Source: Argentina anserina (taxonomy: Eukaryota; Streptophyta; Magnoliopsida; Rosales; Rosaceae). Taken from it: a stretch of 64,000 nucleotides of DNA. The DNA lies in contig NC_065873.1 of the NCBI RefSeq assembly GCF_933775445.1, positions 23,498,001 through 23,562,000 of the forward strand, given 5' to 3'. Shown here one piece after another: positions 16,078 through 64,000 of this stretch (positions within the stretch are counted from its first letter, which is position 1; each line of letters begins with the position of its first letter). A program made the translations under genes and the position numbers. The notes below the pieces were generated by a model that was given only the letters and a program-made list of their open reading frames with translations, had not been told where the DNA came from and searched no databases.

Positions 16078-16097
16078 TTGGCGCCGTCTGTGGGAAA
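16078..16097 (+). promoter_or_regulatory. primer binding site, Tat-type element
   Basis: TTGGCGCCGTCTGTGGGAA directly follows the 5' LTR. The first ten bases TGGCGCCG.. are complementary to the 3' end of plant tRNA-Asp, a usual primer for plant gypsy elements; the rest matches less well. Confidence 0.75.
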
Positions 16098-16336
16098 CCG
16101 CAACAAAAAGTCAACAAAAAAAAGGGTCACATGCAACACTTAGCCAAACAACTACACTTCGACATGGGCACTATCAATCCCTCTCCCTCCACTCCGGCAG
16201 ACGGTCACATCGAAGACATAACATACCTCAGCCTCAACCACCCCTACCCTCCGCCAACGACCCTATCATCCTCACACCTACACCCGGAACAGTCGTCAGC
16301 ACGAACGCGACTCCGGATCCGGCAGCTGCCGCACGA

Positions 16337-35456: not shown

Positions 35457-36981
35457 CTTGACCTGTTTACATGGATCTTCAGTTATGATGCTGAATTGGT
35501 TTTGGTTGTAAATCTGAAAATGTAACCTGTAAGTAGTCTAGATTAAGTTATAGCTCTTTTAAATGCTGTAGTCCGCGCACCTACACATCTCCAGCTCCCT
35601 TTTTAGTGTAGAAGTCTGGAGTTTCATTTTGTGTGGTGTGCATGAAGAATGTAGTTGAACTGGAGCCGTAAGGCCTTTTTTTGTTATAAAGCTTGCTTGC
35701 TGAATAAAAGAAAGACATGTTTGATATAAATTTCATATCTATTTTGGTTTCCATGAATGTTGGTTTTGGTTTGGCATTGCAATTTTTTAACGACAGTTGA
35801 GCATCATCTGGCATTGGCTTTGCTGTTGCCCATCCCATGTAAGCTGCCAAACACATGTAGGCCAGACATGTAGGCCATCATTAGCAAGCATTATATATCC
35901 CTGGCCATAGCAGCGTTACCTCAGCACTAACCTACCTTCGCTCAATTATTCTGCACTTTACATCCGATTACTTGTGCTAATCCGTTTCACTTACACCACG
36001 GTCATCATTAAACAATAAACAATTGTTGAGTTAACTTAACATTCTAAACTTCTGATCTTTGCCTTTGAGTCTCAGGCATAAGATTCTACACTTAAAACTC
36101 TTATACTTCACTCATTTGTATTAACTTGTCAAGTTCCCACTTAAACTCTAATGAAAGAGCACCTTCTTTTCCTGGAATACTGGAAAATGCCCTGTATTGA
36201 AGCGGGAGCCCACAAAGATTTTATTCCTTGCTAAGGCTAGGTAAACTAAACCACTGTAAAATCAATTACAGAGATGAATATTTGTCCCTCTCAGTGGCCT
36301 ACCTCTTCCAGACGCGTGGTTCACACCAGGGACGGTTCATTCCCGAGTCATCTCTTAGAAATGGCGCGGAAATTCACGCGCGCTCGGAGAAGGTGGAGTG
36401 CGACAGTGTCTTCTCGGAAAACGTTGACCTTTAATTCAGGAAACCCTAAGAAAGAGGAGACCCCCTTTCCACTTTCCAGCAGCCCAATTTGATATCCCAC
36501 TCTGTCTTTTGTCTCAGCAATCCAGAGCAGACACCCATTAAAAAATCAATCAGCTTTTTTGATTGGCTTCTTTGGGTTTGTCTCTGGATTAGTTTCCCCT
36601 AATTTTGCTGAGTTTGGAGCCCTAATACATCAATCAGGTTCACAAAGACTGGATTTTTATTTATTGTAATTTGCTTTCCTTGCTGCAATTAGTGTTTGGG
36701 TTCTTTGTGCTTATTCCTTTTCATATTACAATTACTTAGAGCTTCAATTTTGGAGCCGTTTAGCTTCTGCTGTACATCAAATTGTTACACTTGTATCTGG
36801 TTGTAGCTGTGTAATTATACGTTGGATTTCATTTAATTGTAATTCAAACAGTCAAGCTTCTATATTGGGGTCAGTTTTTGTCTTGTTGCTCATTTCATGA
36901 GAAGGGTTTTGGGTTAAAGACAGAGCTCTCAGAACCCTTTTTGTTTTTGGGGGCTGTTTTTGTGTGTTTGTTGAAGTATCA
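35457..36981. other. intergenic and PHOX upstream region
   Basis: The first 100-300 bases are presumably MICU 3' untranslated sequence. From about 36360 to 36981 lies the probable PHOX promoter and leader, which contains a small upstream frame at 36361-36492. No other gene seen. Confidence 0.5.
36361..36492 (+). other. possible upstream ORF before the PHOX gene
   Basis: ATG to stop, 43 codons, Arg/Ser-rich (MARKFTRARRRWSATVSS). It lies about 490 bp upstream of the PHOX start. Whether it is in the transcript depends on the unknown transcription start and a possible leader intron. Confidence 0.25.
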
Positions 36982-39237
36982 ATGGGAAAGCCAACTGGGA
37001 AGAAGAAGGACCATGAAGTGCAGAAGCCTGGGAGTAAGCAGGGGAAAACTGTGGATCGGAACTCGAAAGCGTTGGACGAAGACACTGCTATCTTCATCAA
37101 CATGTCCCAAGAGCTCAGAGAGGAAGGTCACAAGCTGTTCCAGAAGCGTGACAGTGAAGGGGCTATGTTGAAGTACGAGAAGGCGTTGAAACTGCTGCCG
37201 AAGAATCATATTGATGTTGCTCATTTACATAGTAACATGGCTGCGTGTTATATGCAAATGGGTCTTGGGGAGTATCCTCGAGCAATTAATGAATGCAATT
37301 TGGCGTTGGAGGTGTCACCGAAGTATAGTAAAGCGCTGTTGAGAAGGTCGAGGTGTTATGAGGCTTTGAATAGGTTGGATTTGGCATTGAGGGATGTTAA
37401 TACTGTTTTGAGTATGGAGCCGAATAATTTGAATGCATTGGAGATTTTGGAGAGTGTGAAGAAGGTGATGAGTGAAAAGGGGATTGTTGTTGATGAGAAA
37501 GAAATTGGTATTGCTAATGTACAGCAGACCGCCCCTGCTGCTCGTTTTCGTAAAGTGGTGAAGGAGAAGATAAAGAAGAAGAAGGGTAAGAGGGTTGGGG
37601 AGAAGACAGAGGACAAGGCTGTTGTGGAAGAAAATGTGAGAGCTGTCAAGGACAAAGAAGTGGTTACAAAGACTGTTGAGAAAGACAAACTGGTCCCAAA
37701 GCATGTTGAGGAAGAAAAACAAGTTGCGAATCATGTGGAAGAGAAGCATATTGAGAAAAAAAACGTAGTTACAAAAACGGTCAAGTTGGTATTCGGAGAG
37801 GATATAAGATGGGCTCAGTTACCAGTTAGCTGTAGCATGAGGCTGGTCAGGGAGATAGTTAGGGATCGATTTCCTGGCCTGAAGGGTGTCTTGGTGAAAT
37901 ATAGAGATCAAGAAGGTGATTTGGTTACAATTACAGCTACAAATGAGTTGAGGTTAGCCGAATCATCATGTGATACAAGGGGGTCGCTTAGATTTTATAT
38001 AACAGAAGTCAGTGCTGATCAAGAACCAATTTATGAGGGCTCAAGTGAAGAGGAAGTGTGTAAGGAAGATCTGACGCGCAGTAATGGTTTTGAGAATGGG
38101 GACGGCGGAAATCATACAGAAGTGGGAAAAGGGTCTACAACTTGTGTTGAGGACTGGATTATCCAGTTTGCAAGATTGTTCAAGAACCATGTTGGTTTTG
38201 ATTCTGATTCATACTTGGATCTTCACGAACTTGGGGTGAAGCTATACTCGGAGGCAATGGAAGACACTGTAACACTTGATGATGCTCAAGAACTTTTTGA
38301 TATTGCTGCAATTAAGTTCCAAGAGATGGCGGCTTTGGCATTGTTCAATTGGGGAAATGTCCACATGTCTAAAGCAAGGAAGTGGGCATCCTTGCCTGAA
38401 GATGCTTCAAGGGAAGCCGTTATTGAACATGTCAAGGCTGCATATGAATGGGCGCAGAAAGAATATAAGAAGGCAGAGAGTAGGTACGAAGAAGCTGTGA
38501 AAGTAAAGCCAGACTTCTATGAAGGTTATCTTGCACTTGGCCAACAACAGTTTGAACAGGCTAAGCTTTCTTGGTACTATGCGATTGGAAGCAAGATTGA
38601 GTTGCAAAATGAGCCTTCTTCAGAGGTGCTTCAGCTTTATAACAAGGCTGAGGACAGCATGGACAAGGGAATGCTATTGTGGGAAGAGATGGAAGAGCGG
38701 CAGCTAAATGGACTCTCCAAAGAAGATAAGTATAGAGCCCAATTGCAGAAAATGGGATTGGATGGTCTATTTGAGGAGATGTCTGCTGATGAAGCTGCTG
38801 AACAGGCTGCAAATATGAAGTCACAAATATACCTCCTATGGGGAACCTTGCTGTATGAGCGTTCTGTTGTGGAATATAAGCTAGAGCTACCAACTTGGGA
38901 GGAATGTTTAGAAGTTGCCATTGAGAAGTTTGAACTTTGTGGAGCCTCTCCAACAGATATAGCTGTGATGATAAAGAATCACTGTTCCAATGAAAATGCA
39001 GTGGAAGGTAAAGTACACAGGATCTCAGAAACTTTTTGAGGTTTTAAGATTTGAAACATATGATCAATTTGCATTAATTTAACTACAGGTATGGGGTTCA
39101 AAATTGATGAGATAATCCAGGCGTGGAATGAAATGTATGATGCTAAGAGGTGGCAGTTTGGTGTACCCTCTTTCCGCCTTGAACCATTGTTACGTCGACG
39201 TGTACCAAAACTTCATTCTATTTTGGAGCATGCTTGA
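36982..39237 (+). CDS. PHOX/CLMP1-type TPR and PB1 domain protein
   Basis: Two exons, 36982-39007 and 39089-39237, giving 724 residues. N-terminal TPR repeats at about residues 44-160 ([20 protein letters not shown]) fit HSP90/HSP70 carboxylate-clamp types. A Lys/Glu-rich linker with KKKKGKR near residue 198 follows, then a PB1 domain at about 266-342 ([15 protein letters not shown], ending LRFYITEV), and a long helical C-terminal half with more TPR-like repeats ([19 protein letters not shown]). This order defines the plant PHOX family (At2g25290, At4g32070, At1g62390/CLMP1). CLMP1 is needed for chloroplast separation; others are proposed myosin or chaperone partners. I chose the ATG at 36982, not the in-frame ATG at 36964, because MGKPTGKKK matches the family N-terminus. 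Position next to MICU suggests the PHOX1/PHOX4 type. Confidence 0.92.
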
Positions 39238-40011: not shown

Positions 40012-40552
40012 CTACTTTTCCTTTTGAAGACGCACAATGAAAGTTGTGACAATATTTGACTCAGCACTAGAGGTTGGCCTTGGCTCCAATACAAGGAGTT
40101 TCTTGATATACTTAACCTCAAACGACTCAAACGTCCAGCCAGAGCTCGAGCTGCTATGTGGTGATGGTATCGTTCTGATTTGAGGATTTGCGATTGGATT
40201 CACTAGCTCAAGAGGAAAATAACGAGAACCTTCAGTCAGCAACCAGCGATCGGAAGACGTAGTTGCAACTTTATACTCTTCTGGTAATACATTGTTGAAG
40301 TTGTAGACCCTTTTATCTGAGAGACAATGGAACCTGTATTTCCAGAAGAATTTTCCATAAGTACGGTGACCAAGCATCAGCCATGGCTCCGGCAAAGGAG
40401 GACTAGAGATCACAACAGAGAGCCACGACTTGGATACTGAAGCAAAAAGAATTCGATTATTAGGGGCCAAACGTTTGTAGATCTCTTCCAAGAGTTCTGG
40501 TGGCAGGACGTACAAACTCCTTTGGGGAGTCTTTGTTATGCATTTTGTGAGT
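40012..40552 (-). pseudogene. F-box/DUF295 gene fragment, copy A
   Basis: A minus-strand frame of 167 codons holds an F-box (LPPELLEEIYKRLAPNNRIL) and the first part of a DUF295 region, then stops at 40012, half the length of copy C. The frame has no ATG: upstream it runs from TTG (40515) back to a stop, and the nearest ATG at about 40540 is in another frame. The copy thus lacks both a start and its second half. The family are SKIP23-like F-box proteins, putative substrate receptors of SCF ubiquitin ligases. Confidence 0.75.
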
Positions 40553-41914
40553 AACTATGGGTAAAAGATTGATCATATATCTAGAAAACAAGAACAATTC
40601 GAGAGAGACCATCAGCTTTTATAGGTTATCAAACAAGAAATCCAAAAACCTTGGTTAAGAGGGAAGCTAATCCAAAACCAAATATAAATCCCTACATTGT
40701 GGATAGACTACTCTAGAAAGGGAGAATATGAAGTCCTAATCACAGTAGGAAACATTTTGTCCCAAAAATTAATTTGGGAGAAGGTGATATGGATAGTGGT
40801 AAATATTCACGACCTAGAAAGTACTTGATCGCAAGACGACCCCCAGTAAAACAAACGAAGATATTCTTGATGTTGACAACAACAAAACAGAAAGATCATC
40901 ACTATATTGTACACCTTACTAATCCTACGATTACAGTGAGGGATCATTCTACCCTTATCTAGATCAACAATCATATCCTTATTCGGTGGAACAAACCAAG
41001 TGGGTCCTCGCCAGAAGCATCTTGGGGGTCGAATGGAGATTTGTTTGACGGTTTCATATTTCAGTGAATAAACACCAAATCTCGGATTATCTCCAGGGAC
41101 AGTGAAGTATATATGATTCTCTTCAAATTGTGAAAACTTTCCAACTGGTAAGGAAGTACATCCATCACTACACCAAAAGAATGCTTGATCACCTAAGCTT
41201 CGCAACTTGACAGTGCGCAAGGGCGTATCCTCATTTATATGTAGTTTAAAGACCTCAAATCCAAGTGTAGGGTGCTTGAATAATCTCTTTACAAGCAATA
41301 TGTCTCCATGAGACTCCCACTAAGCTGAACTCTTCTCGACTCCGTGGAAACTTCTTGGTATCTGTGCCTCTAACAACATAACAGCTCCCTGAAAGAGTCT
41401 TCAATTGTTCATCTAAGCCAAAAGCAACAAGATGTGTTGTTGAGCCACTACTCTCCAAGGAATATAATTTTTATTGTTAATTACGGTATCATCGGAGGAC
41501 TTTCTATAATAATGCCATGGCCGATCAGTGTCACACGTAATTGAGACGATTTGGTTCCTCTCAGAAAGTATTATTACACCAGTTGGTGTTAAACAACGAC
41601 AAGCGTGGCCCATAGACTAGGGGTGGCACTTAAGACCGAGAAACCGGAAAAAAACCGAACCGAAAAAACCGGACCGAAACCGAAAAAAAACCGAACCGAA
41701 CACAAACCGAAACCGAAATTTAAAAAACCGAACCGAACTGAAATAATCGGTTTGGTTTCCGGTTTGGGCACATAAGAAACCAAACTGAACCGAAAAACCG
41801 ACTATTCATAAAGTAATGTCGTTTTACGTTTATATTACCTAATATTTGATTTGATTAATGTGATTTTAGGTTTATATTATATATAATTATATGTTTCTCT
41901 TTTGTAGTGTTATA

Positions 41915-44845: not shown

Positions 44846-47800
44846 TCATTTTGTGAGTATATCTGCAAGTTGATCTTCTGAAGGAACAAAAGGAAAGCTA
44901 ATGGTCTCAGCATCTAGCTTCTCCTTTATAAAGTGACGATCAACCTCCACATGCTTTGTACGATCATGTTGTACAGGATTCTGTGAAATATCAATAGCTG
45001 CCTTGTTGTCACAGTACAGCTGCATAGCACACTTAGGCTTAACACCCAAATCTTGTAGCAAATTTCTAAGCCATAACAACTCGCACACTCCCTGAGCCAT
45101 ACCTCTGTATTCTGCTTCAGCACTTGATCGAGCTACCACCTTTTGTTTCTTACTCTTCCAAGTAACAAGATTACCCCCAACAAAGGTAAAATACCCTGAT
45201 GTGGATCTCCGATCTGTAATATTTCCAGCCCAGTCTGCATCTGTGAAACCACAAACCTCAATGATATTGTTGTGTTTAGAAAACATCACTCCTCTCCCTG
45301 GAGCTGACTTCAAGTACCTCAAAATCCTCACAACAACATCCATGTGATCCATACTGGGATTATGCATGAACTGACTCACTACACTTACTGCATATGCAAG
45401 ATCTGGTCTGGTATGTGATAAATAAATCAGGCGTTCAACTATCCTCTGATAACGAGTCTTGTCAGTAGGCACCTGATCTGGGTACTCTGCTAACCGATGG
45501 TTCTGCTCAATAGGAGTATCAATTGGAGTGCAATCCAACATACCTGTCTCTGTTAGTAGATCAAGGATGTACTTTCTCTGACATAGATAGATACCATCAC
45601 TTCCCCGGGCTACCTCAATGCCCAAGAAGTACTTGAGTGTTCCTAAGTCTTTCATCTCAAACTCTGTAGCTAGTTGCTTCTGTAAACTATCCATCTCAAT
45701 AGTATCATTACCAGTAACTACCATATCGTCAACATATATAATTAGGGCTGTTACCTTCCCTTGTTGGTGTTTGAGAAATAATGTGTGGTCTGAATTACTC
45801 TGCTTGTAGCCAATTTTCTTCATGAATTGTGAAAATCTTCCAAACCAAGCACGAGGAGACTGTTTAAGACCATACAAAGACTTTCTTAATCTGCATACAA
45901 AGTTATCTGGAGAAGCTGCCACATATCCAGGAGGAAGATCCATATACACTTCTTCTGTAAGTTCTCCATGAAGGAATGCATTCTTAACATCAAATTGTCT
46001 AAGTGACCAGTTTAAAGTAGCAGCAAAAGAGAGCAATACCCGAATAGTGTTCATCTTTGCAACAGGTGCAAATGTCTCATCATAGTCTATGCCATATGTT
46101 TGGGTGAACCCTTTTGCTACTAGGCGTGCTTTATACCGGCTTACTGACCCATCTGGATTATGTTTTACTGTAAACACCCAACGACATCCCACTGCCTTCT
46201 TGCCATGTGGTGGAGCTACAAGCTCCCAAGTGTTGTTCTTCTGTAATGCTTCCATCTCTTCTTCCATCGCTTTTCTCCATTTTGGATCTCCCAATGCATC
46301 CTGCACTTTGTTAGGTATTGATACAGCAGAAATTTGATTCACAAATGATTCATATGACTTAGACAATCTTTTGGTAGACATAAAATTTGCCACAGGATAC
46401 TTAGCTTTAGCCTGAAGGGTAGGTTCATATGTTTTTGTTGGCTGACCTCGAGTAGACCTATTTGGCAAGACATATTGTCTACTATTAGCTTCACTAGTAT
46501 TAGCCCCAATAGAATTACTAACCTCAGATGAGTGATCTTCTGTACCAGGGGAACGTTGGTCAGGGGTATAAACAACAGTAGGGGAGGCAGGAGGGGCAGT
46601 TGTACTCTCAGCTTCTGGTACCTGAATCTCTGGAGTGACTATACCAGAATCATCAGTAATCTCAACCGAACTTGTCACCATATCTCCTGGCTGACTTGTC
46701 TCCCCCTTTCCATGATACAGCTCTTCAAAATATGAAATCTCCCCTGAAGGGTAGTATCAGAAGACGTGAAATAGCTCATGTCCTCAAAGAAAGTAACATC
46801 CATAGTGACATAATACTTTCTGGTAGGTGGATGATAGCACCTGTACCCTTTCTGATGCCCTCCGTATCCAACAAACACACATTTAACCGCTCGGGCATCC
46901 AACTTAGACCTCTGATGTTTTGGAAGATGGACAAAAACAACACAACCAAAAACACGGGCGGGAAGATTATGAAAAGAGGGTAAGGAAACATGGGATGCAA
47001 GCACCTCATATGGAACTTTGCCTTCAAGGACACGAGATGGAAGACGATTAATGAGGTGAGTAGAAGTTATGACAGCATCACCCCAAAGGTATTTAGGCAT
47101 ATGGGCACTAAAGAGAATACACCGAGCCATTTCAAGTAAATGACGATTTTTTCTTTCGGAAACTCCATTCTGCTCAGGTGTGTAAGGACACGTTGTTTGA
47201 TGAACAATGCCATGTGCGTTAAAGAACTCCTGAAAGACACGATTCACATATTCCCCCCATTATCAGAACGAAAATTTTTTATTGTGGCATTATATTGTGT
47301 TTGGACAGTGGTATAGAAGGCTTGAAAAGCCGAAAAAACCTCATTTTTGGTTTTCAGAAGGACAATCCATGAAAGACGTGTGCAATCATCAATAAATGAC
47401 ACATAATACTGCATTCCCGAAATAGTAGACTCTTTGGAGGGTCCCCAAACATCAGAATGAATTAATTCAAAAGGAATGATACTTTTATTAGAAGTACTAG
47501 GGGAATAGGTAGACCGATGACTCTTGCCTAAAACACATGTTTCACAACGAAAAACTGACTCATCCACACCAATAAACAAAGTAGGCATGGATTTTTTCAT
47601 TATACTAAATGAAGGATGCCCCAAGCGACGATGCCATAACCAAACTTCACTTAGCTTATCAGAAGTGGAGAGTAAAGCGATCCGGGACTATGCCCCTGGT
47701 TTTTCTCCCGCATATGTCTGATCCAGATGAAACAACCTGCCCCGTAGATACCCCCGACCAATTAACTCCCCGGTGAGAAAATCCTGAAATATCACATACA

Positions 47801-49106
47801 TGGGAAAAAATGTCACAGAGCACTTAGCTTCAGTGTTTAATTGTGGGACCGATATCAAATGATGAGATAAAGCAGGTACATATAACACATTGTGAAGCTC
47901 TATTGTGGGAGTAATACGAACTGACCCTTTACCTAATACGGGGAATGCCTCACCATTAGCATTAGTAACATATGGTACTGGTGGAGGAGATAATATAGTA
48001 AAATAAGATTTGTCATAAGTCATATGATCGGATGCACCAGAATCAATAATCCATGTATCAAAACTACCAAAGTGAGAAATATGTAAAGTTATACCAATCT
48101 TACCACGACCAGCTATTGATGCTGTGGGTGTTACTCCTCCTGCTATATGATGATCGTGTCCAACTACACCATAAATATCTGGTTCCTGGATCAGTTGAAT
48201 AGCTGCTTTTGCTTTAGGACGATAATTAGGCCTTTGGGGCCTAAGGTGTGGATACAACTTCCAACAGGTTGCACGAGCATGGTTGGTATCTTGACAATAA
48301 GAGCAAGGAGGGCGGGGCTGATTCCCGAAGCCTGGTGGTGGTCCTCGGTGATGAAGTGAGGATGAAATGGCCTGCTGAATGGGCGGTGCTGAAGATCGAG
48401 CACGGATAGTAAGGCTGGAAACTTCAACTTGTGTGTGATGAAGGCTGTTCTGCTGAGATTCATCCTTACGGATATATGTGAAAGCTGCAGTTAAGCTAGG
48501 TGGCTCGGTCTGGCGGAGCAATTCCCCTTTCGCATTGTTATGTTTAGTATCAAGACCTTTCAGAAAATGGTGAACTCGCTCAAGCTCCTTCTCACGTTGG
48601 TACCAAATAATATCCTCCTGATGTTTGATCATGCAAGGACGTTTCACATCAATCTCAGCCCAAATATTTCTTAGTTTGGTGAAATATTGCGCCACCGGTT
48701 GCCCATCTTGTTGCATCGCCAAAGCGGTGCACATTAACTCATGAACCTGTATGAAATCAGAGTCACTAGTATATAAGCCTTCAAGTGTGAGCCATATTGC
48801 CTGCGCAGTGTCACATGCCTCCACCAAATCAATTATTTCTTCATTCATAGCTTTCCACAAGACGGACATCACAAGGCCATCATTGTCGTCCCATTTAGTG
48901 TAGGCAATAATATCATCTGCACTAGGAGCCTTAGTTATTCCGGTTACATGCCCCATCTTGTGCATGCCTCGAAGGTGAGCCGTCATAAGTCGCTTCCATT
49001 TGCGGTAATTGGTCCCATTGAGTTTAGTTCCCCCAAATGACCCACTATCAGAACTCTTGACAGATACCTCAAATTTCGGAACATCAGCTTCGTCTCCAGA
49101 ACCCAT
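44846..49106 (-). pseudogene. gag-pol of the copia element
   Basis: Starts at 49106 (MGSGDEADVPKFEVSVKSS). Gag follows, with a CCHC knuckle CSYCQDTNHARATC (about 48310-48270) and protease WIIDSGASDHMT. Integrase (HSDVWGPS, DDCTRLSW, SDNGG, EQNGVSERKN), reverse transcriptase with IYVDDMVV, and RNase H ending LADILTK at 44846 come next. Three lesions are visible: an in-frame TAG at 47690-47688, and two losses of one base in G runs, at 47258-47253 and 46744-46741. The rest is intact. An element this young with three breaks may have been mobilised in trans, or the G-run losses may be sequencing errors. Confidence 0.93.
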
Positions 49107-49845
49107 TGAAAAAGAATATGAAATCCGGGTCGGGTCACAATCCGGGTCGGGTCACAATCCGGGTAGGGTTGAAATCCGGGTCGGGTCGTAGTCCGGGTCG
49201 GGTCACAGTCCGGGTCGGGTCGCAGTCGAATGCGGGCCGAGTTCGAAACTTAATGCGGGCCGGGCTGAAATTGATTGCGGGCCGGGCGGGTCGAGGCTGA
49301 GGGAGCGGGGCAGATATAAGGACGGAGCGATGGAAGAAGCAGAAGGAAGAGGGCGAGCGTGTTGCGGCGGGCTTGGCCTGAGGGAGCGGTGCCGGGGTCC
49401 AGAGAGCGGCGCCAGGCGTACGACGGCGACGAGGTCACAGTGGCGGTGAAAGGGGCGGAGCAGCAAGCAGCTTGCAGCGCCGGTAGGTATGGATCTCGAT
49501 ACGCCGGTGCTTGGTGAGGAGCGCTAGATGATGGCGATGGCGACGTCGGAGGCGCGCGGAGGGCCGGGTTTGGATGAGGAGCACGACAGCGGGAGTCCGG
49601 TCGGGTTTAGATGAGGAGTGGAGCAGCGGAGGAGCACGGCAGTGGAGGAGTGGAGGAGCACGACAGCGGAGCATCACGGCAGTGGAGGAGCGGAGGAGCA
49701 CGGCAGCGGAGGGGCACGGCAGCGGAGTAGCACGGCAGTGGAGCAGCGGAGGAGCACTTCACGTTGCGTTGCCGAGCTCTGCCAAAAAAAGGTAAACAAC
49801 CAAAAATAAAACCCAGAAAAAAGACAGAGCAATGCTCTGATACCA
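49107..49845 (-). repeat. minisatellite-rich leader of the copia element
   Basis: The 740-bp leader between primer site and gag is strongly GC-rich. It contains a 17-bp unit repeat (CCGGGTCGGGTCACAAT) at about 49122-49226 and a second array of GGAGGAGCACGGCAGCGG-type units at about 49606-49765. The arrays keep open frames by composition, but no protein family is seen. Confidence 0.8.
49834..49845 (-). promoter_or_regulatory. primer binding site, copia element
   Basis: TGGTATCAGAGC on the minus strand directly after the 5' LTR, complementary to the 3' end of initiator tRNA-Met, the usual copia primer. Confidence 0.9.
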
Positions 49846-50012
49846 AGTAGAATATGCTACAATCTTATATATTGAATTGAGTACTTACAAGGTATTTATA
49901 ACATTCTAAGCTATCAATTATCAAGTATGAACACAAAGATTGATTTGTCAATTTATACGGCTAGGGATTTGGTTGGTGAGATTGTGTTTATGTATGTTGA
50001 CTCATGCTAACA
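49846..50012 (-). repeat. 5' LTR of the copia element
   Basis: 167 bp, nearly identical to 44603-44769; differs at two adjacent bases (GTTTATG against GTTGTTG near 49987). Supplies the present stop codon of F-box copy C at 50002-50004. Confidence 0.93.
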
Positions 50013-51084
50013 GTAGGTTCAGGTTGAAGATTGATTTGGTGCACCCATCTTTTAGAGAATATACACCATGTTCCTCCTCTTTTTCTTTCGGAGTATCAAT
50101 GAAATATATGTGATTCCCTTCAAACTGTGAAAACTCTCCAACCGAAAGAGAAATGCATCCACCCCTTCCCGAGAACAATGCTTGATCTCCCAAGCTTTGC
50201 TGCTTGACAGCGTCGACGCAACATTTACCTTCAACCAGTTTAAAGACATCAAATCCACCTGTTTGAACTTGTCTTGTCACAATCAAGAGATCTTCCCCGG
50301 ACTCCACTAAGTACGCCTTTGCTCGATTCTTCTCAGAAGATGAGGGGTGAAATATGCCTTGAACAACTTGGAACTGCATTGGAAGGAGCTTCATTTGTTC
50401 ATCCCAGCTGATTACAGTAAGAACAGTATATGGGTGGATCTCCAAGGCATATATTTTTCCCTTGTAATATACAATATCTTCGGAGTTACAGATGTAGTGA
50501 TATTCCCATCTATTCCTGTCAAGCTTGATAGAAATGATAAAATTTGTAGCAAGTAGAATCACAGATGTGACAACTGAAATGTCACCGGTGGTCTCGACGA
50601 CTACGACAAGTTTCTTAATGTCTCCCACATTTCTGTCTGAGCTTATAGGTGGAAGCTTTATTTCAGCATTCAAGATTGGATTCACAAGAACTAGTGGTTC
50701 TTTCCCTGCAACTGGTAATTGGCGTTGAGTAACAATCCAACCATTACATGACCCCAAAATTTCACAACCTTCATTTGGAATTATAGCATCAGGCCTGTAA
50801 AACCTATTGTCAGAAAGACCAAAGAACTCGTTCTTATTTTCTGGTACTAGGCGGTCACCATGAGGATAACGAAACACCAGCCATGGCTCTGGAAGAGCAT
50901 GAGACTTTGCAGATGCGGCGACAAAGAGCCAAGGCTTGCAGATTAAAGCAAAACGAGCTTGGCCGGATATGACCAATTTCTTATATATTTTCTCCAAGAG
51001 TTCTGGCGGTTGATCAGACCAGTCCTTTTGGCTGAGATCAAACTTCAACTCTGGCATTAGCATATTTTCTGAACTCATTTCCAT
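50002..51084 (-). CDS. F-box/DUF295 protein, copy C, C-terminally altered
   Basis: A single-exon frame of 360 residues, start at 51084 (MEMSSENMLMPELKFDLS). An F-box lies at about residues 22-60 (QPPELLEKIYKKLVISGQAR) and a DUF295 beta-propeller-like region after it (GKIYALEIHPYTVL, then SLGDQALFSGRGG). F-box proteins of this group are putative substrate receptors for SCF ubiquitin ligases. The final residues LLA and the stop come from the copia LTR, which replaced the original 16-codon end now at 44597-44545. The body is intact, so a nearly full protein could be made, but its polyadenylation signals would now be those of the LTR. The loss removes the conserved WFVP motif. Confidence 0.85.
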   Translation of the reverse strand: MEMSSENMLMPELKFDLSQKDWSDQPPELLEKIYKKLVISGQARFALICKPWLFVAASAKSHALPEPWLVFRYPHGDRLVPENKNEFFGLSDNRFYRPDAIIPNEGCEILGSCNGWIVTQRQLPVAGKEPLVLVNPILNAEIKLPPISSDRNVGDIKKLVVVVETTGDISVVTSVILLATNFIISIKLDRNRWEYHYICNSEDIVYYKGKIYALEIHPYTVLTVISWDEQMKLLPMQFQVVQGIFHPSSSEKNRAKAYLVESGEDLLIVTRQVQTGGFDVFKLVEGKCCVDAVKQQSLGDQALFSGRGGCISLSVGEFSQFEGNHIYFIDTPKEKEEEHGVYSLKDGCTKSIFNLNLLLA

Positions 51085-52555
51085 TTCTCAAAGCTCCCGA
51101 AATACAGTATTGAGGTGTTAAGACTTGAGAGTTGAGAGTACGCGCGGATATATTTATAGGCGTTCAGACTTGAATTCCAAAACGCGCTAGGAAAAATTAA
51201 ATTCCTACTACGTACAGTAATGTTTTCTCACCACCTGTCATATACCACATAAAATTTTATTTAAACTACCCATTTTAATTAACATAAAAATCAAGAGTTT
51301 TACACCTACCTTGTCAATTGTCATGATTCGAAGGTACCTAATTAATAACCTACTTCAGAGAATACACACCATGTTTCAATATTCCTTTACGCTCTTAGTA
51401 AGATGTATGACATTTGTCTCGGCTTTCGCTCTTTACCAGCCCTAACTGGTCTTGAGATGTGACTAATCTTTGTTCAATGAATGTCACTTCTTCATGCTAT
51501 GATGAATAAGTGTGATGTCGATATACGAAATAAATTTACCGACCACTTTTCATTTGCCAATTTTATACCTATCCTTCTGTCAATATATATTCTGACCTGT
51601 AACATAGTGAGAAGACTAACTATATTAGTAATGATGTTTGTCGTGACTTTTATTTTTTCGGTATCACTACTTGTGGTTTTGTGTAAAGTAAGTATTTTAA
51701 TTCTTCAAATACGTGAGTGCAGCTGCACCGGATCCCACTTAAAAACAAATAAAACTTTTATTCATATCTCTTAAAATGACATTTAAACCTTTTTTTTTTT
51801 CAAGTTAGTTTTAACTTTGTCAACGCATGTTAAATTACAAAAAGACATATAAAAGTAAACCATATAAAAAAATTCTCAACTTACCTATTATAAAGTATGA
51901 ATGTAGATAATTCTCCTTTATCATTTTAAAATCTGTTATTCCTAATGTATCAATTAAAAATCTATGTAGAATTTTTCATGAACTTCGGTTTGAGACTTTG
52001 AGCGTGAGAAAACGTACAAAACTCGTTCATGAGATAGTAGAAACTTTCATGTGAGTTCTAGTGTTGCATATCAATGAATCAAAAAAAAATTCAATTTTAT
52101 TATGAATAAGAGAATTAATGAAAGATAAAATTAATTTGAGGAGATAATTAATGTAATTATCAAGTATTTTTTGTATTGTATAATAAATGAATTTAAAAAA
52201 AATGTAAGAAATAAATTAATAAATAATAATTTAATTGGATATATCAAATTAGAACATGGGCAATATAAAAAAATTAAAGAGATCTAAACAGCTATTTAGT
52301 TTTTTTTAAGTAAAAAAAAGAGGTCAATTATTTTAGAGATACGAACAGAAATTCTTTTAAAAATCCAAATTTGATTGCAATAAAAGAGAAACAAGAATGA
52401 GAAAACCAGTTGGTTAGTCCCACTTCGATTCTTCCAACAAGTAAAGCAAAGCTCAACTGCATCAGATTCTATATTTCTCTGCCTCTCACTCTCTCAACTA
52501 ATTCGCACCCAACTTTTGGGTTTCCTTTGTCTTCTTCATCCTCGAGATTACATCC
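51085..52555. other. intergenic, promoters of F-box C and MEMO1
   Basis: AT-rich. A TATTTATAGG read on the plus strand near 51150 (minus CCTATAAATA) is a likely TATA box for copy C, about 70 bp upstream of its ATG. The last 170 bases before 52556 are the CT-rich MEMO1 leader. Nothing else seen. Confidence 0.5.
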
Positions 52556-55155
52556 ATGGAGATTGTCAGAAGACCATCGCACGCTGGTTCTTGGTACACC
52601 GACAACCGTCAGTATCTCTCCTGCACTCTTAACTCAGAAATATAATTCATATGCTTCAGATTAGTATTACACCAATTATTAGAGTCGTTTGTTAAAGTCA
52701 TCAAACTTGATATTTTTGTTAGAGAGTGATAATTAGCTTATTGGGTTTAAACAGATATGATTCTTATGCATAAAAGATTTGATCTTTCAGCCAAAAAGCT
52801 AGCAGAAGAGCTTGAAGGATGGCTTAGAGAATCTGGGCTCACTAAATCTCCTGATGTACGAGGTGTCATTGCTCCGTGAGTTCGATTTCAATACCTGCTT
52901 TGAATTGGTTTCTTCCAGAAATTGGCAGATTGTTTTGATTGTTGTGTGGAGTTTCAGGCATGCCGGTTATTCATATTCGGGGCGTGCTGCTGCCTATGCA
53001 TTTGGCAACATTGACCCAACAAACATGTGAGTTATCTTGTCATGGCTTCTCATTGGATCCCTATATGTAGTAGGAGTTGATTACATTGTGATATCTTAAG
53101 GCGAATCATTTTTATAGCCGTAAATATTGATTGGTGTTGCAATGAATTGCACAAAGGTTTGCTAATTTTGCGAGAAACTTGTGTTGTCAGCACTCGGGTG
53201 TTCCTTCTTGGTCCATCTCATCACTACTACACTTCAAAGTGTGCCGTTTCAACAGCCACAGTTTACCAGACCCCCATTGGGGACCTACCTATTGATTTGG
53301 AAGGTACGGGGATTTTCAAAGTTTGATTTACAGTGTTTGTGCTCTAGTATTGCTGTGTTGCATAAGCCTTGATGATAAATGCTATGTAATTATGCATGAT
53401 ATAGTGGAGATTGTGTGTAGTGAACTGGGGCATGACTTGCATCTTGTTTAAGTGACATTTTTTGTTTTCACTCAATAGATTCTGCTAAGGAAATATGTCA
53501 GAAGATGACCATGTGTTATCATGTATAGTAGTTTAGTATATTTCTGTTCACTTTTGAGGGTGTTTTCTAAATTTTATTTGTACCACTTTTCAGTGATTGA
53601 GGAGCTAAAGACTACTGGAAAATTTGAAACCATGGATATTCGTGTTGATGAGGCTGAACATAGCATGGAAATGCATTTACCATATCTTGCTAAAGTTTTT
53701 AAAGGGTATTGTTTTCAATTTCTTTTACTTTTTCAAGCCGAATTGTTCTATTTTGTATTCATTTCTAGAAGGGATAATTTATGGCTACACTTATATGCAG
53801 GCACCCAGTCAAAGTTGTACCAATTTTGGTTGGTGCTCTTAAACCTGAAGCAGAAGGTACATATGGACAGCTCCTTGCCAAATATGTAGATGATCCAAAA
53901 AATTTCTTCTCTGTGTCATCAGACTTTTGTCATTGGGGATCTCGGTATGTTTATTAGTAGTTCTGTGTAGCTCTTGGTCTCTACTGGCACGAGTGCCAAT
54001 GTCAATGCATATCCAAATTAACTGCTCTGGATTTAGATGAGGCCATCTACAGTGTCACCATGAGAGAAATGTGCATGAGTGCTAGGCTCTCAAACTCTAT
54101 CACACAGATACATACTGAGTGCTCTTGTTGCACTTGGGAACCTACCTGTTACGATTAGAGCTCATAATTACTTTTGAATATTGCCAAGGATATCAAAGCA
54201 GTGGTTGGATGAAATTAAAATATCACTTACAATTAAATAAAATTAAACATATACTTAAGACTGCCATTTCATTTCATGGGAATATGAATTGATAAGTTAA
54301 GATGATGGTTGGCATGATTTGCTCATTCTCATCTCTTGCGATGCTATTTTTATGTATGCATGAAGCTGGGTAGATGTAAACCATGCCTGAGCTTGTCGTT
54401 CTTTCTCAGGTTCAGCTATGTGCATTATGACAAAAAACACGGGGCCATACACCGATCCATTGAGGCGTTGGATAGGATGGGAATGGATATAATAGAAACG
54501 GGAAATCCAGATGCATTCAAACAGTATCTCTCGGAATATGATAACACTATTTGTGGGCGCCATCCAATAAGCGTTTTTATGCATGTAAGTACCCCTTATA
54601 TGGAACTATGTCTCTGAAAGGGAAGCCTTTTTTTTTTTAAATTCTGGTAAGAATATCACATCCCATGATGCAAAAAAAAAAGGCCTCCTAGCTAGGATGA
54701 GGCCGGAATAAAAGGGCTATATAATTGACTATTTGAAGCTGTTGGAGAAATATGTTTCTGTTTCAGCTTTAAAACTTTTGCTATCAATGTAAAGACCAGT
54801 ATCCTTATGTTTCTAGGTTCTAAGATCATTCTCTTTGGAGAGCATCTATGTCCATGTTATTTCTCATTTTTGTGAACTCATTAAGGATTTGCTACTTTGC
54901 AAAAGAATTGTAGGTTACCTAAACTACAAAATGCTTCTTCTTCCCCATTGCTTGTAGAGGCTCTTTTTATTTATTTTTCTTTCTCATTTGTAATATTCTG
55001 ACCTTTCAATTATACTATTCTGAATGCAGATGCTGAGAAACTGCTCAACAAAAATAAAGATCAATTTCCTCCGATACGAGCAGTCAAGTCAGTGCAAAAC
55101 TATGAGGGACAGCAGCGTAAGCTATGCCTCTGCAGCAGCAAAGTTGGATTCTTGA
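52556..55155 (+). CDS. MEMO1 family protein
   Basis: Eight exons: 52556-52607, 52791-52875, 52958-53026, 53191-53303, 53594-53705, 53801-53944, 54410-54584 and 55030-55155; all junctions GT-AG and in frame, giving 291 residues. It starts MEIVRRPSHAGSWYTD. Conserved MEMO motifs are present: VIAPHAGYSYSG, FLLGPSHHYY, AEHSMEMHLPYL, SSDFCHWG and CGRHPISV, including the His, His and Cys that bind the metal in this fold. The fold is related to class III non-haem iron dioxygenases; in animals MEMO1 acts in ErbB2 signalling and iron binding, but the plant role is unknown. The Arabidopsis homologue is At2g25280, which lies between homologues of the membrane protein and PHOX of this window. Intact. Confidence 0.94.
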
Positions 55156-56398
55156 AGACTTATTCCATCAACAGATTCAGCAATTTAATACCGAGTTAAC
55201 TGTAATGCTTAGCTCGAGTATCAATGCATTTCATGAACAACTGCCCCTGCTTGTAGATAAGGATCAGGTTGGTCACGCTTTGGTTTTGAAATTATGGTGA
55301 CAGGGATCATAACTCTCTTTCCTTGCCATCTATTGCTTTATCCGATGAGGATCTAATATTTCGTTTGGTGACTTGAGTTTTGGTTTTGAAATGACTCGGG
55401 TAGAAGAATGTCAACATCCTAAACTGATTGAATAGTTTCTTTATCAAACTCAACTTGGGTAGCTTAGTATAAAACATTAGTATATAACTATATATGGGTT
55501 TCGAGAAGAACATCAGTAAGTTCTGTAACATTTATAGAACCTTTAAAGGGGTTAACGTTCTGCATTCACACAAATGACACTTGAGAGCTGAAGCAGAAAC
55601 CAACGAATACATAATATAGATAGAAGTCAGAGTTCCACAAACTAGAGTTTCATAAACTTGAAATTGTTTTCCAAATCTAGTCATACAAAGAGGAAGCGGC
55701 TGAAAGTTGAATTTGGAGGCACACTGCTGTCCAAATTCCTTTTAACCAGCGGAAGTATACCCCATTTGCCTTCTAAATCTAAAGGCTCGAGGGCATGAAC
55801 TTCACCGTGAGAGAGTCCAACGGCAAACTGGCCGGGTTTGTTATTTGTGTATAGCTCCCTTACATAAATCATACCTTTAACATACGATTCTTCATTCTTA
55901 CACGACCAAGATCACATACGAGCAATATAAGAATTCATACCTTTGTTTGGTTAATGTGCTCAATAACATATATGTTACACACACACACACACACTATATA
56001 TTCTAATTCGAAACCAACGGTGCGATAGCTAACTCTTCCTATGTGGCAATAAAACTAGATCACCACGATTGAAATTTCTCGTCATCAACAACTATATATT
56101 CCGTTCAATATGTGATATAACTACTCGTAAAGCTTCTGAAAGAAAATTGAGATGGCAACACATGAAGAGCTAATGCAGACATGATTTATTAAATTGAATA
56201 AACTGGAAACTAAAATCAAACCAGAACATCACACAAATATGAGTTTTTGAAATGAAACTGGAAATTAATGCGACAAAGGCACAAACTAATAATAAGCAAA
56301 CTAAATGGTTATTGTTTTCAGAAAATCGATTGCATGCCTCTCTAGCTGGTTCAACTAGCCAATTGTACTGCTTCAAGATTCGGGAGGTGCTGGTGGCT
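55156..56398. other. intergenic DNA between MEMO1 and TOPLESS-like gene
   Basis: Contains presumed 3' untranslated sequence of both neighbours. A minus-strand frame at 55681-55872 (YVRELYTNNKPGQFAVGLSHGEVHALEPL) resembles the WD40 part of TOPLESS-type proteins (AVGLSDGSVHVLEPL-like) and could be a displaced remnant of the missing WD40 half. A CA microsatellite lies at 55977-55994. No other gene. Confidence 0.5.
55681..55872 (-). pseudogene. possible TOPLESS WD40 C-terminal exon remnant
   Basis: The minus-strand frame reads QFAVGLSHGEVHALEPLDLEGKWG. TOPLESS-related proteins end with a blade of the same form (a run like QFALGLTDGGVHVFEP, then Gly-Lys-Trp-Gly). The frame starts after an acceptor-like site (near 55850) and ends at a stop near 55681. 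It lies about 500 bp downstream of the LisH-CTLH gene on the same strand, so it may be the last exon of a once full-length TOPLESS gene. I found no exons for the intervening WD40 blades. Confidence 0.5.
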
Positions 56399-57286
56399 TC
56401 AATATTGAATCTTCCCTTCAAGGAGAGGATTTGCCTCTAAATTGGTTCTCATGTAACCCAACATCTCCCTTCTTTTATCTTCAAGATTTCCATAACCCCT
56501 GAACGCTTCATGCATCCTGCAAACATTTGATTGATTTGAACCATATATACTTATAAATGATATAAACATGTGAACTTTAATCAATATACATAATACATTA
56601 CAACCTTTAAAATCATCGATACACTAATCAAATTAAACCATATATACCTGAAATCATCCAAGCTAGCTAGCTCGCTTGCAGAAACAATTAGATTGGGCTG
56701 GTACCGCTCAAAGGGTCTCAAGTCTTGGTCTATGATTTTCCGCGCCTCAGCACGATCGACGTCCCTGTAGTGCACCAAGTAGTAAATTAGCAATTAGTTA
56801 AATAAGGTGAAGCATGACGAGTTAAAAGGCTTTCTGTAGTTCATAGGTGAGTGTTACTTACTGATCGAGTACCGCCACAAATTTGTGCCAGTTTATCTCG
56901 AAGTAAACATTGGCCGAGAACGCATTGTCATAGATGCCCGGCAAAAAACTGACTAGGTAATCCTCCGCATCTTCGAAAAGTCCCGACACAAAACAGTGTT
57001 CGAAATAAGCCAGGTTGAAGAAATAGCCAGTTTCCTTTTCCAGGCTAACATATAAAATATGGAATACTAATTATGATTAGTACAATTAATTAATATTAGC
57101 ATGTAATATTAAGGTGGCTGTGACTATTGAAATACATTATATAATACGAGTAATTTAGAATATATCTGGCTAGTGATGGATCAAGGGAAATCATACTTAC
57201 GTCCTGGCAGTTTCATGGCAATTCATAGAGTCGAGAAATGCTATCGCAGCGCGAACCAGACGTTTGTGAGCGTTATTATCAGCCAT
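56399..57286 (-). CDS. TOPLESS-like protein, LisH-CTLH region only
   Basis: Four coding exons: 57286-57201, 57044-56862, 56764-56648 and 56516-56399, all in frame with GT-AG borders, giving 167 residues. Residues 8-40 form a LisH motif (RLVRAAIAFLDSMNCHETAR, then TLEKETGYFFN) and residues 36-130 a CTLH region (YFEHCFVSGLFEDAEDYL). The last exon has the EANPLLEGKIQY motif, matching EANPLFRDKLQF of TOPLESS, and then a TGA. In TOPLESS corepressors this region tetramerises and binds EAR motifs of transcription factors, while the WD40 propellers that should follow are absent here. The product could bind EAR proteins or TOPLESS itself without repressing: a competitor. Intact frame and a consistent 5' leader intron argue for a live gene. 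Confidence 0.85.
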
Positions 57287-57307
57287 TGCAGTGTATATAT
57301 GCTAGAC

Positions 57308-57680
57308 CTGTATCATTCCAAGTTCCAACCATCAACCAATTACCAGGATGAGCCAAAAGATTTCATATCATAGTAGATAATATACAAAGATGTGTAGCAG
57401 ATCGATCCTACATGGCTACATGAAACAAATCGAATTATCTATGGTTTTAAGCATAGACAACAAGGGTGGCAAGAAATTAATGAGGTAAACAACAAGAAAA
57501 ACCAAGGAATTGGGAAGTCCTTCGAAAACCCCAAAACCATTAGTTTCGATTCGTGAAAACAGAACTAAAACAGAAACTCATTCTAGCTAGCTAACAGGGT
57601 AGAATGAGAACGAAAATAATACGATCTATCATCTATTAATCAAAATAAAGGAAGAAAGTATTAGAGATAATGGTTCTCAC
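57308..57680 (-). other. 5' leader intron of the TOPLESS-like gene
   Basis: A donor GTGAGAACC (57680 downwards) and an acceptor GATACAG (to 57308) bracket 373 bp just upstream of the ATG at 57286. With the TATA box at 57729-57736 this gives a short, normal leader, so the intron is plausible but only predicted. Confidence 0.5.
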
Positions 57681-57728
57681 TTGAGCTCTGGGGCTCGCTC
57701 AGTGTATATAATGCTAGAGTTTGGCATC

Positions 57729-61001: not shown

Positions 61002-61513
61002 TTAGTTCCTTCGAGGTCTTGGAAACCAGCTTGGAGTAGTAACAGTATGATTATTCGGTCCTGGTAACGCAAATTGGCCGGGAACTGCTTGAGGTGCTGG
61101 AATTGGAATAAGCGAAGCAGCAGGAATTGCCAGAGGAGCTGGAAGTTGTGGAGGTAGGATTACTGAATTTTTTTCGTGGTGGATGGGATACCGAAGTTTC
61201 CCAAACAGCAGAGGATTAGAGTACAAGTTCCATCTAATGACATCCAGCCTCTCCATCCTGTGGTACTGTGGATCCCCGTAGAACAAAAACAATTTATGCA
61301 TCCTACAATATTTGATTAATCGAACACATACATCAAAATTATTTAATATATGTATATATAATCTCACTCAACTACAACTTTTGAGTCGAAATCGTCGCAG
61401 TAATTAATCTATACCTGAAGTTATGCATATTCACCAGATCGGTTGCTTGGCTAAGCATGTGTTGATTGTAGACCGCCAAAGGTTGAAGTTTCTCACGGAT
61501 GATAAAACGCGCC
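61002..61513 (-). pseudogene. second TOPLESS-like gene, 3' exons only
   Basis: Two exons remain on the minus strand. 61513-61415 encodes a CTLH stretch (FIIREKLQPLAVYNQHMLSQ). 61302-61002 encodes MHKLFLFYGDPQYHRMERLD and SNPLLFGKLRYP, then a Pro/Ala-rich tail of about 60 residues (LPAPLAIPAASLIPIPAPQA) and a stop. Exon borders are at the same places as in the gene at 56399, so the two are tandem duplicates. The upstream exon is cut at 61513 in an Ala codon by the end of an LTR element; earlier exons are not in the window and may lie beyond it. The long tail is absent from the other copy. Confidence 0.78.
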
Positions 61514-62272
61514 TGTAACGACCCTAAAATTTCGAGCTTAAAAACTCAAAATTCTAAAGTCGTTAAACACAAAATAATCTCAAGAAAATCGAAATCATTT
61601 AAGTGCACAGCGGATCATCACTGAGTTATCAATACAACTCAGAAAACCAATTATTACAACCCAAATTTATAATTTACATTACGTAAGTTGGAATGTAATA
61701 ATCCTCACAATCTCTCACAAAATAGACACACAAAATCCTCACACAAGCTGGAGGTAAATCACTTCATGTTCTCTGAGCGGTCCGTCAATTCCCGCTAATC
61801 TACACCTGCGGAGTCATCCACAACACCATCGAATTGGTGCACCGGGATTGTAAACACAAACCCGGTAAGCTTTACAGCTCGTATGAGTAAAATCAAAATA
61901 TAATTCGCATATCAAAATATACGAAAGATCACAAAACAACAAATATAACTGCCCTCATGAGTCACTCGTCAGCCCATCTGGTTGACCCAAAGAAATATGA
62001 AATAAAACGTTCATGAGGAAATTAGGTAACCCTTCTGGTTACCCAATGCATTTATAATACGGGTACCAAGAACGCTGGTACACATCTGTTACCCCTCTCG
62101 TAATACACCGTTGATATTGGATAGCCACCCGCTACCCAACATCCAAAATACACCGAGTACCCATGAGCAGATAACCACCCGTTACCTCGCATGCAGTACT
62201 AAGGCAGACAGACTAGAGCTCTAACTGTATCGTAACTTTCGCCCGGCCAAAGGCTAGGTTTCGACTTGCCAA

Positions 62273-62470
62273 ACACGTACAATAATCTCACATCATATTG
62301 TACCAAAATCAGGTCCGAAGACAATTCACATTTTAACAATCACAATGTTAAAAATCACGTACAATAATCACACATCATATTGTACCACACATCACGTCCG
62401 AAGACAAATCACAATTTTTAACATTCTCCGTGATAAAATCATGTACAATAATCACTCATCATATTGTACG
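62273..62470. repeat. 84-bp tandem repeat, three copies
   Basis: ACGTACAATAATCNCACATC recurs at 62273, 62357 and 62441 with 84-bp spacing, with CGTCCGAAGACAAATCACA between copies. Part of the LTR element. Confidence 0.75.
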
Positions 62471-63086
62471 TTTTAAAACTTTCACGATATCACCAAAATA
62501 AAAATCATAACAATATATTATATAGCAAACTATATATATTCGTATTTATTACCATTTATACAATATATACATAGTTCACTATATTCTATACATGTCATAT
62601 TTCATAAACACCTGAAGAATTACGTACAATATTCTCACATACTCATGCTCAATTTTCCGTCACCGAAATGACTATTTTTAATGCATTAATAACAGTACGT
62701 AATTTAATGAACTATATATATATTATGTACCTATTACCATTATACTATATATATGTAGTCCACTAAATTATATACATGTTATAATTCATTTGATAAACAC
62801 ACTTGCAAAATGTTGAATCACCACGAGGGTAGATTCGTAAATTCAGTGAGATTTTACTCACCTTATCGACTCGAGCGTAATTCACAATTCCCGATGATAT
62901 TTCCTTTCCTCGATTTAGCGATCACCTTGAAAAGATAAGAAAAGAATTTAGAATCGTTTCGTAACCTTTAAATGCCGAAACAGTAATAATCGGTTACTGT
63001 TCAGCAATTTTCGGTTTTACGAAGTTACTGTTCAGTGGTACTATTCACTGTTACTATTTCCGGATACTGTACAAATATGCAATTAA

Positions 63087-63341
63087 TACGTATTTTTGTA
63101 CGTATAAATATTATGTACGTATTTCTGTACGCATAAATATTATGTACGTATTTCTGTACGTATAAATATTATGTACGTATTTCTGTACGTATAAATATTA
63201 ATACATATTTCTGTACGTATAAATATTAATACGTATTTCTGTACGTATAAATATAATATACGTATTTCTGTACGTATAAATATTAATACGTATTTCTGTA
63301 CGTATAAATATTAATACGTATTTCTGTACGTATACGTACGA
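63087..63341. repeat. 28-29-bp tandem repeat, nine copies
   Basis: Nine units of TACGTATTTCTGTACGTATA plus AATATTA(TG). Each unit contains the palindrome TACGTA and a STTGTACG-like core, so single strands could fold. Part of the LTR element. Confidence 0.9.
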
Positions 63342-64000
63342 TTTAAATGTAAATACAAATTCAGTAAATAAAATTTACTAAATTACCCTTTTACAAATTA
63401 CTTTTTACATTTACTGAAAGTAATTTATATTTACATTTACCGAAGGCAAAACTTAATTACATTTACCGTAGTAAATAAAATTTACATTTACATTTAAGTA
63501 AATTACCAAAATACCCCTATCGGAAACACTGTCGCACCGCCGCACGTGGCGGCGCGTGGGGTGCACGCGCCACCCGCCGGCAGGCCGCGCGTGGGGCACA
63601 CGCGCCGAGCCCAGAGACGGCGCGTAGCACGCCACCGCCGCCCCAAAACTCTCCCCTCCCTTCCTCCGCCCTTCCCTCGGCCTCACGCCGCCCCTAGGCT
63701 ACTCCACGCACTAACACGCGCCGCCCACTGCGGCGGTAAGCCTTCTCTTTCAAACCTTCTCCAATCCCCCTCCGATCTCCTCACATCCATCCCAAAATCA
63801 TCCAAAATCATCACACAACATCAATATCATCATTCCTTACCTTGATTGCACGGCGGAGCCCTTGAATCGACGATGGTGAAGCTTGAGGTGCCGGCGGAGG
63901 AGATCGAGCAGTAGTGGAGGTAGGCGGCGATTCGAGGCTTAATCCTTGACGCGTGGTTCCAGGGATGAGGAGGAGCGGTGGCGAGCTTGCCTCGAGCACG

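What the first reader, a model, noticed from the sequence alone, without database searches (positions are those of the whole stretch)
56399..57286. TOPLESS-like protein reduced to LisH-CTLH, a possible natural antagonist
Four exons join in frame to 167 residues that cover only the tetramerisation and EAR-binding region of TOPLESS. There is a proper stop and none of the WD40 propellers. TOPLESS uses this region to bind EAR repressors and to self-assemble, so a propeller-less protein could compete as a microProtein-like inhibitor. The function is inferred; the frame, splice sites and leader intron are seen.
Basis: partly seen in the sequence, partly recalled or inferred. Interest (0 to 1): 0.75.

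Follow-up and report, generated by a model that had tools for sequence, protein, structure and literature searches.

The report
Short TOPLESS-like protein, altered EAR pocket
This plant gene appears to make only the front module of the gene-silencing protein TOPLESS; it groups with short proteins from strawberry and apple, and the pocket that TOPLESS uses to grip its partners is changed, so it probably does not simply compete with TOPLESS.

Summary
Four minus-strand exons (57286-57201, 57044-56862, 56764-56648, 56516-56399) join into a 167-aa LisH-CTLH/CRA protein with the intron positions and phases of full-length TOPLESS genes (PDB phmmer E 3e-25). The short genes form one clade with a strawberry and an apple database protein (99.9/100). 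All five carry Trp78-His79-Phe81 where canonical sequences have Lys, Gln and (10 of 11) Tyr; Arg67 and most MED21 contacts are lost. The A, B and C tips together show purifying selection (omega 0.22; omega 1 rejected), but A's own branch does not reject neutrality. So the gene structure is real and its kind looks old, but its presumed EAR pocket is rebuilt; simple EAR competition is not supported. Most likely it is a stand-alone dimer module for another ligand, under relaxed constraint here. No transcript or binding data were available; function is inferred.

The parts
57201..57286 (-). Exon 1 of gene A: ATG and LisH-like region; donor GTAAGT
56862..57044 (-). Exon 2: CTLH region; carries the changed pocket positions (W78 H79 F81 in TOPLESS numbering)
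56648..56764 (-). Exon 3: CRA region
56399..56516 (-). Exon 4: end of CRA (helix 8 region) and stop TGA, at the equivalent of TOPLESS residue 163; helix 9 absent
57308..57680 (-). Putative 5' leader intron (splice consensus only); the stretch 57305-57700 matched only itself in the own genome
56373..56402 (-). Short proline-rich stretch in another frame, over and just after the stop, resembling the tails of B and C
56185..56190 (-). Candidate AATAAA poly(A) signal
55717..55842 (-). Remnant of a last (WD40) exon of a TOPLESS-type gene, open frame, not joined to gene A
61002..61513 (-). Sister short gene B: exon 4 with proline-rich tail and stop, and the 3' part of exon 3; exons 1-2 lie beyond the window (L009 about 7698-7334), with a premature TAA in exon 2
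61514..64000 (.). Window part of one LTR (about 3.08 kb in all) of a young LTR retrotransposon inserted in exon 3 of B

Best explanation
Gene A is a member of a short-protein branch of the TOPLESS family, found here in this genome and in database proteins of strawberry and apple, that consists of the LisH-CTLH/CRA module alone (in the others with a proline-rich tail) and has no propellers. Shown: homology, exon structure, shared descent with four other short proteins, selection over the A, B and C tips together, and pocket positions changed in the same way in all five. Inferred: the module still folds like the TOPLESS N-terminus and dimerises, but its changed groove no longer grips LxLxL EAR peptides in the usual way and reads another ligand, so that it works as a stand-alone adaptor rather than as an EAR competitor. 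In this genome the group is loosening: B is broken, C has apparently lost its old tail, and A has lost its tail and is the most diverged.
For: Short clade of five against 11 canonical-pocket sequences, SH-aLRT 99.9 / bootstrap 100. W78, H79, F81 in 5 of 5 short; K78 and Q79 in 11 of 11 others. A,B,C tips omega 0.22, lnL -3848.33 against -3865.06 at omega 1; A and B jointly 0.22, -3849.31 against -3865.31. A's 167 codons and three introns carry no lesion, while simulated neutral drift of 0.05 substitutions per site leaves about 5% of runs lesion-free (assumed indel rate). The AlphaFold model of the apple relative matches the TOPLESS N-terminus (5nqs_A TM 0.61/0.76) and has a low-confidence tail. 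Near B and C, (rows to E 0.3) shows no WD40-exon match beyond two weak rows (E 0.08 and 0.29).
Against: A's own branch does not reject omega 1 (free 0.51, lnL -3849.23 against -3849.31), nor does B's at -3850.79. A keeps 32 of 44 positions invariant in the other four short proteins, the lowest share of the five. No expression, binding or structural data for A. The roles of residues 67, 71 and 78 are recalled. Synonymous sites are saturated (NG86 gave a dS for 1 of 7 pairs), so omega values are rough. P0048 and P0050 are database gene models and could be partial.
Confidence: 0.5

Rival explanations
1. EAR decoy: A binds EAR repressors and keeps them from TOPLESS, a microProtein-like competitor.
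For: CTLH/CRA homology kept; F74 kept in 5 of 5 short proteins. Engineered TOPLESS 1-188 fused to a targeting peptide blocks EAR repressors in plants (PMC5466438, passages).
Against: Pocket positions 67, 71, 78 (roles recalled) and 150 changed in A; helix 9 missing; unfused TOPLESS 1-188 had no effect on lateral roots (PMC8203292, passage).
Confidence: 0.15
2. Poison subunit: A joins TOPLESS dimers or tetramers and makes propeller-less, client-poor complexes.
For: In A the LisH contacts L8 and F15 are kept, and the CRA interface positions 102/116/117/122 read R/S/E/D where the genome's T6 has K/T/Q/D, mild changes.
Against: LisH contacts S5 and E19 are H and M in A, and B and C change the interfaces more; TOPLESS 1-188 made monomeric still repressed (PMC8203292, passages); TOPLESS 1-188 bound itself more strongly than the longer 1-288 (PMC5466438, passage).
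Confidence: 0.13
3. Recently dead relic: A is a decaying duplicate whose intact frame is luck.
For: A branch omega 0.51, not distinguishable from 1; tail lost; sister B broken by a TAA and a young LTR element; C tail apparently disrupted; A the most diverged of the five.
Against: No lesion in frame or splice sites, which in a simulation with an assumed indel rate bounds neutral drift to about 0.05 substitutions per site.
Confidence: 0.22
4. Mini-repressor: the module alone represses through MED21, as TOPLESS 1-188 does when tethered.
For: TOPLESS 1-188 represses when fused to IAA3 or IAA14 (PMC8203292, passages).
Against: MED21 contacts V145, E146, K149 are G, Y, T in A; K148 is R; no tether is known.
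Confidence: 0.05

Closest known systems
TOPLESS/TPR corepressors (N-terminal structures 5nqs Arabidopsis TOPLESS, 4zhe rice TPR2)
   Same: LisH-CTLH/CRA homology; intron positions and phases of the genome's own full-length genes; 32-36% identity to those six over the module
   Different: No helix 9, no proline-rich linker in the reading frame, no WD40 propellers; pocket positions changed
Fragaria vesca 'topless-related protein 2-like' (P0048, 247 aa) and Malus domestica ACFX13_017499 (P0050, 225 aa)
   Same: Short, WHKF pocket, no WD40 match in Pfam; 38% and 41% identity to A
   Different: They keep proline-rich tails; the strawberry one holds an RGRPRGRGRR stretch like an AT-hook (motif recalled)
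CoSRI, engineered TOPLESS 1-188 fusions (PMC5466438, passages)
   Same: Propeller-less TOPLESS N-terminus
   Different: Man-made, canonical pocket, about 25 residues longer, fused to a targeting peptide
Tomato truncated TPL sequences (PMC3935560, passages)
   Same: Partial TOPLESS copies; two of three lie on chromosome 3, which also holds intact family genes
   Different: They lack LisH and CTLH: the opposite truncation

Membership tests
TOPLESS/TPR family (by descent) | CTLH/CRA domain PF21889 | tested here: met
   E 6.5e-26, 91.5 bits, cut-off 27
TOPLESS/TPR family (by descent) | LisH_TPL PF17814 | tested here: inconclusive
   15.5 bits, below the cut-off 30.7; canonical T6 scores 52.8, apple P0050 22.5
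TOPLESS/TPR family (by descent) | Conserved intron positions and phases in the N-terminal region | tested here: met
   introns 1-3 as in six full-length genes of the genome
TOPLESS/TPR corepressor (as working system) | Two WD40 propellers | tested here: not met
   none in frame; only a last-exon remnant nearby
TOPLESS/TPR corepressor (as working system) | EAR groove with R67, K71, K78 (roles recalled) | tested here: not met
   A/N/W in gene A by sequence; binding not tested
TOPLESS/TPR corepressor (as working system) | MED21 contacts V145 E146 K148 K149 (PMC8203292, passages) | tested here: not met
   G/Y/R/T in A by sequence; binding not tested
microProtein | Single interaction module derived from a larger multidomain family | tested here: met
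microProtein | Inhibits the parent family through shared contacts | not testable with these tools
   no binding or expression data

The most novel reading that the evidence does not exclude
A branch of stand-alone LisH-CTLH proteins, so far seen in this genome, strawberry and apple, has turned the TOPLESS EAR pocket into a new reader (Trp78-His79-Phe81); in strawberry it is joined to an AT-hook-like tail, so it could sit on DNA and recruit or block partners outside the EAR code.
Probability: 0.3. Interest if true: 0.7.

Novelty: new variant of a known kind. Interest (0 to 1): 0.45.

Why it matters
TOPLESS reads EAR motifs in many plant hormone pathways. A branch that kept the fold but changed the pocket in the same way, and lost the propellers, would show how the EAR code can be rewritten and give a natural test of which pocket residues matter.

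Tried and rejected
Search with A alone in the protein set: 71 candidates, none at E up to 10; a four-sequence alignment was needed to reach P0048 and P0050. Many of the 118 hits are N-terminal TOPLESS pieces with canonical sequence, perhaps partial gene models, so a short database entry alone proves little; 2 of 118 carry WHK. The control with an approximate full-length query showed that plant TOPLESS proteins are in the set (1770 hits, 120 listed). Pairwise YN00 failed for 6 of 7 pairs and NG86 gave a dS for 1 of 7 (A-B, 3.07).

The downstream exon remnant was considered as A's own lost end. I think this less likely, because the remnant is 57% identical to canonical T6 over 42 aa while A's module is 36%, and neutral DNA as old as the A-B split should not be recognisable (inference). 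Splicing round the stop into it: no good donor before the stop. Leader intron as a repeat element: one match, itself (the tool warns that this does not prove a sequence rare).

Papers: ten searches. Aimed at truncated, short or microProtein-like TOPLESS forms; at the family in strawberry: 17; at structure and pocket residues: 23, 30, 39. No description of such short proteins was seen in the listings or passages; most listed papers were not opened. Passages only were seen of PMC8203292, PMC3935560, PMC5466438, PMC7446885 and PMC13251949. No held paper gave the EAR-groove residues, so these are recalled.

L029 was fetched and not analysed.

Full report
OBSERVATION. The minus strand of 57286-56399 holds four exons that join into 167 residues ending at a TGA. 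Splice sites are good. Introns 1-3 have the positions and phase of those in six full-length TOPLESS-type genes of the same genome. The product matches TOPLESS and rice TPR2 N-terminal structures (E 3e-25 and 5.1e-25) and Pfam PF21889 (E 6.5e-26); LisH_TPL is below its cut-off. It ends at the equivalent of TOPLESS residue 163, so helix 9 is missing.

SURROUNDINGS. The window is C2:23498001-23562000 of a 236.8-Mb genome in 146 contigs. Exon 2 of A (E to 0.001), of C or of the strawberry protein (E to 1) each find the same nine loci, a lower bound by the tool's own words: six full-length genes (D on C2; one each on C1, C4 and C7 and two on C6, with matches through to the last exon) and three short ones. 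A, B and C lie within about 22 kb of C2, and D starts about 4.4 kb further on. B has a premature TAA in exon 2 and an LTR element in exon 3 with a GCGCC target duplication; its two LTRs show 6 mismatches over 3077 aligned bases (4 in 2488; 2 in 589), which at a recalled rate of 1.3e-8 per site and year is roughly 75,000 years. C has an intact module; its tail seems interrupted and degraded when compared with the strawberry relative, on weak matches only (E 0.004 and 0.006). Near B and C, (rows to E 0.3) shows no WD40-exon match beyond two weak rows. Near A a last-exon remnant lies at 55842-55717; in the own genome it matches itself and the last exons of five of the six full-length genes.

RELATIVES. 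With a four-sequence alignment as query, 118 proteins of 0.55-1.75 times the length were found; 2 of 118 carry the WHK signature, P0048 from Fragaria vesca and P0050 from Malus domestica. The tree of 16 sequences puts A, B, C, P0048 and P0050 together against 11 canonical-pocket sequences (99.9/100); C pairs with P0048 (99.9/100, 68% identity); the order among A, B, apple and the C pair is not firm. Two of those 11, P0054 and P0062, are themselves short database entries. The species of the window is not known to me; a rose-family plant is inferred from the closeness of C to P0048. That apple and strawberry belong to different subfamilies, so that the branch is old, is recalled.

POCKET. K78W, Q79H and Y81F are shared by 5 of 5 short proteins (the 11 others: K 11, Q 11, Y 10 and F 1); R67 is lost in 5 of 5 (kept in 9 of 11 others), K71 in 4 of 5 (kept in apple), L150 in 5 of 5; F74 is kept in 5 of 5. 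That 67, 71 and 78 line the EAR groove is recalled; a preprint passage places a variable helix 8 patch in the EAR pocket (PMC13251949). MED21 contacts named in PMC8203292 are mostly lost; E146 is kept in P0048.

SELECTION. Short clade omega 0.17 against 0.019 for the rest (lnL -3849.98; one ratio -3858.10): constraint, but about ninefold looser. With all short branches at omega 1, lnL falls to -3884.27; the A,B,C tips give 0.22, with lnL -3848.33 free and -3865.06 at 1; A and B jointly -3849.31 and -3865.31; C alone -3849.70 free and -3853.18 at 1. A alone is not separable from 1 (-3849.23 free, -3849.31 at 1), and B at 1 costs little (-3850.79). Codon positions 1, 2 and 3 of A and B are 0.58, 0.68 and 0.42 identical over 158 codons. 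Simulation: 4.9% of neutral runs stay lesion-free at 0.05 substitutions per site, 0.1% at 0.1 (0.1 indels per substitution assumed). Positions invariant in the other four short proteins and kept: A 32 of 44, B 32 of 39, C 32 of 37, P0048 32 of 33, P0050 32 of 38.

STRUCTURE. P0050 with an alignment of 31 rows: mean pLDDT 76, ten-residue blocks from 31 to 160 at 83-96, the LisH end at 64-75, the tail from 171 at 38-48. The top 23 PDB matches are TOPLESS and TPR2 N-termini (E 5.1e-12 to 1.0e-10). This is the apple relative, not gene A.

READING. The short gene is a real gene structure of what looks like an old kind. The evidence points to a changed ligand pocket rather than to a plain EAR decoy. 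Function is inferred. In this genome the kind is eroding, and A itself may be near the end of its life or newly specialised; the data cannot tell.

Noticed in passing
window 55717-55842 (-): Remnant of a last TOPLESS WD40 exon; in the own genome its other matches are the last exons of five of the six full-length genes.
   Followed up: partly
window 61514-64000 and L009 1-7216: Young LTR retrotransposon with LTRs of about 3.08 kb in exon 3 of short gene B, target duplication GCGCC, 6 LTR mismatches over 3077 aligned bases.
   Followed up: partly
window 57289-57306 and 57700-57718 (-): Near-identical direct repeat (TCTAGCA..TATATACACTG) flanking the putative leader intron of gene A, one copy just before the ATG; the DNA between matched only itself in the genome.
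   Followed up: partly
P0048 (Fragaria vesca protein): Short TOPLESS-like protein holding RGRPRGRGRR near its end, like an AT-hook (motif recalled).
   Followed up: no
L017 (C6:3166500-3176499): A divergent full-length TOPLESS-type gene, 54-64% identical to the other five over the N-terminal module.
   Followed up: no
window 16076-21799 (+): Retrotransposon frames; reverse transcriptase PF00078 tested, gag- and integrase-like parts by eye. Frames of repeated peptides at about 24.8-25.9 kb.
   Followed up: partly
window 44846-49151 (-): Retrotransposon with long open frames; RVT_2 (PF07727) E 4.3e-77 in 44846-46753, Copia-type by recall.
   Followed up: partly
window 36901-39039 (+): Open frame of 712 aa with TPR repeats and a PB1 domain.
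   Followed up: partly
window 40012-40554 (-) and 50002-51087 (-): A frame with an F-box, and a frame with a KIB1-4 beta-propeller domain.
   Followed up: partly
window 53509-54614 (+): Memo-like gene pieces (PF01875; one of two frames above the Pfam cut-off), convergent with gene A.
   Followed up: partly
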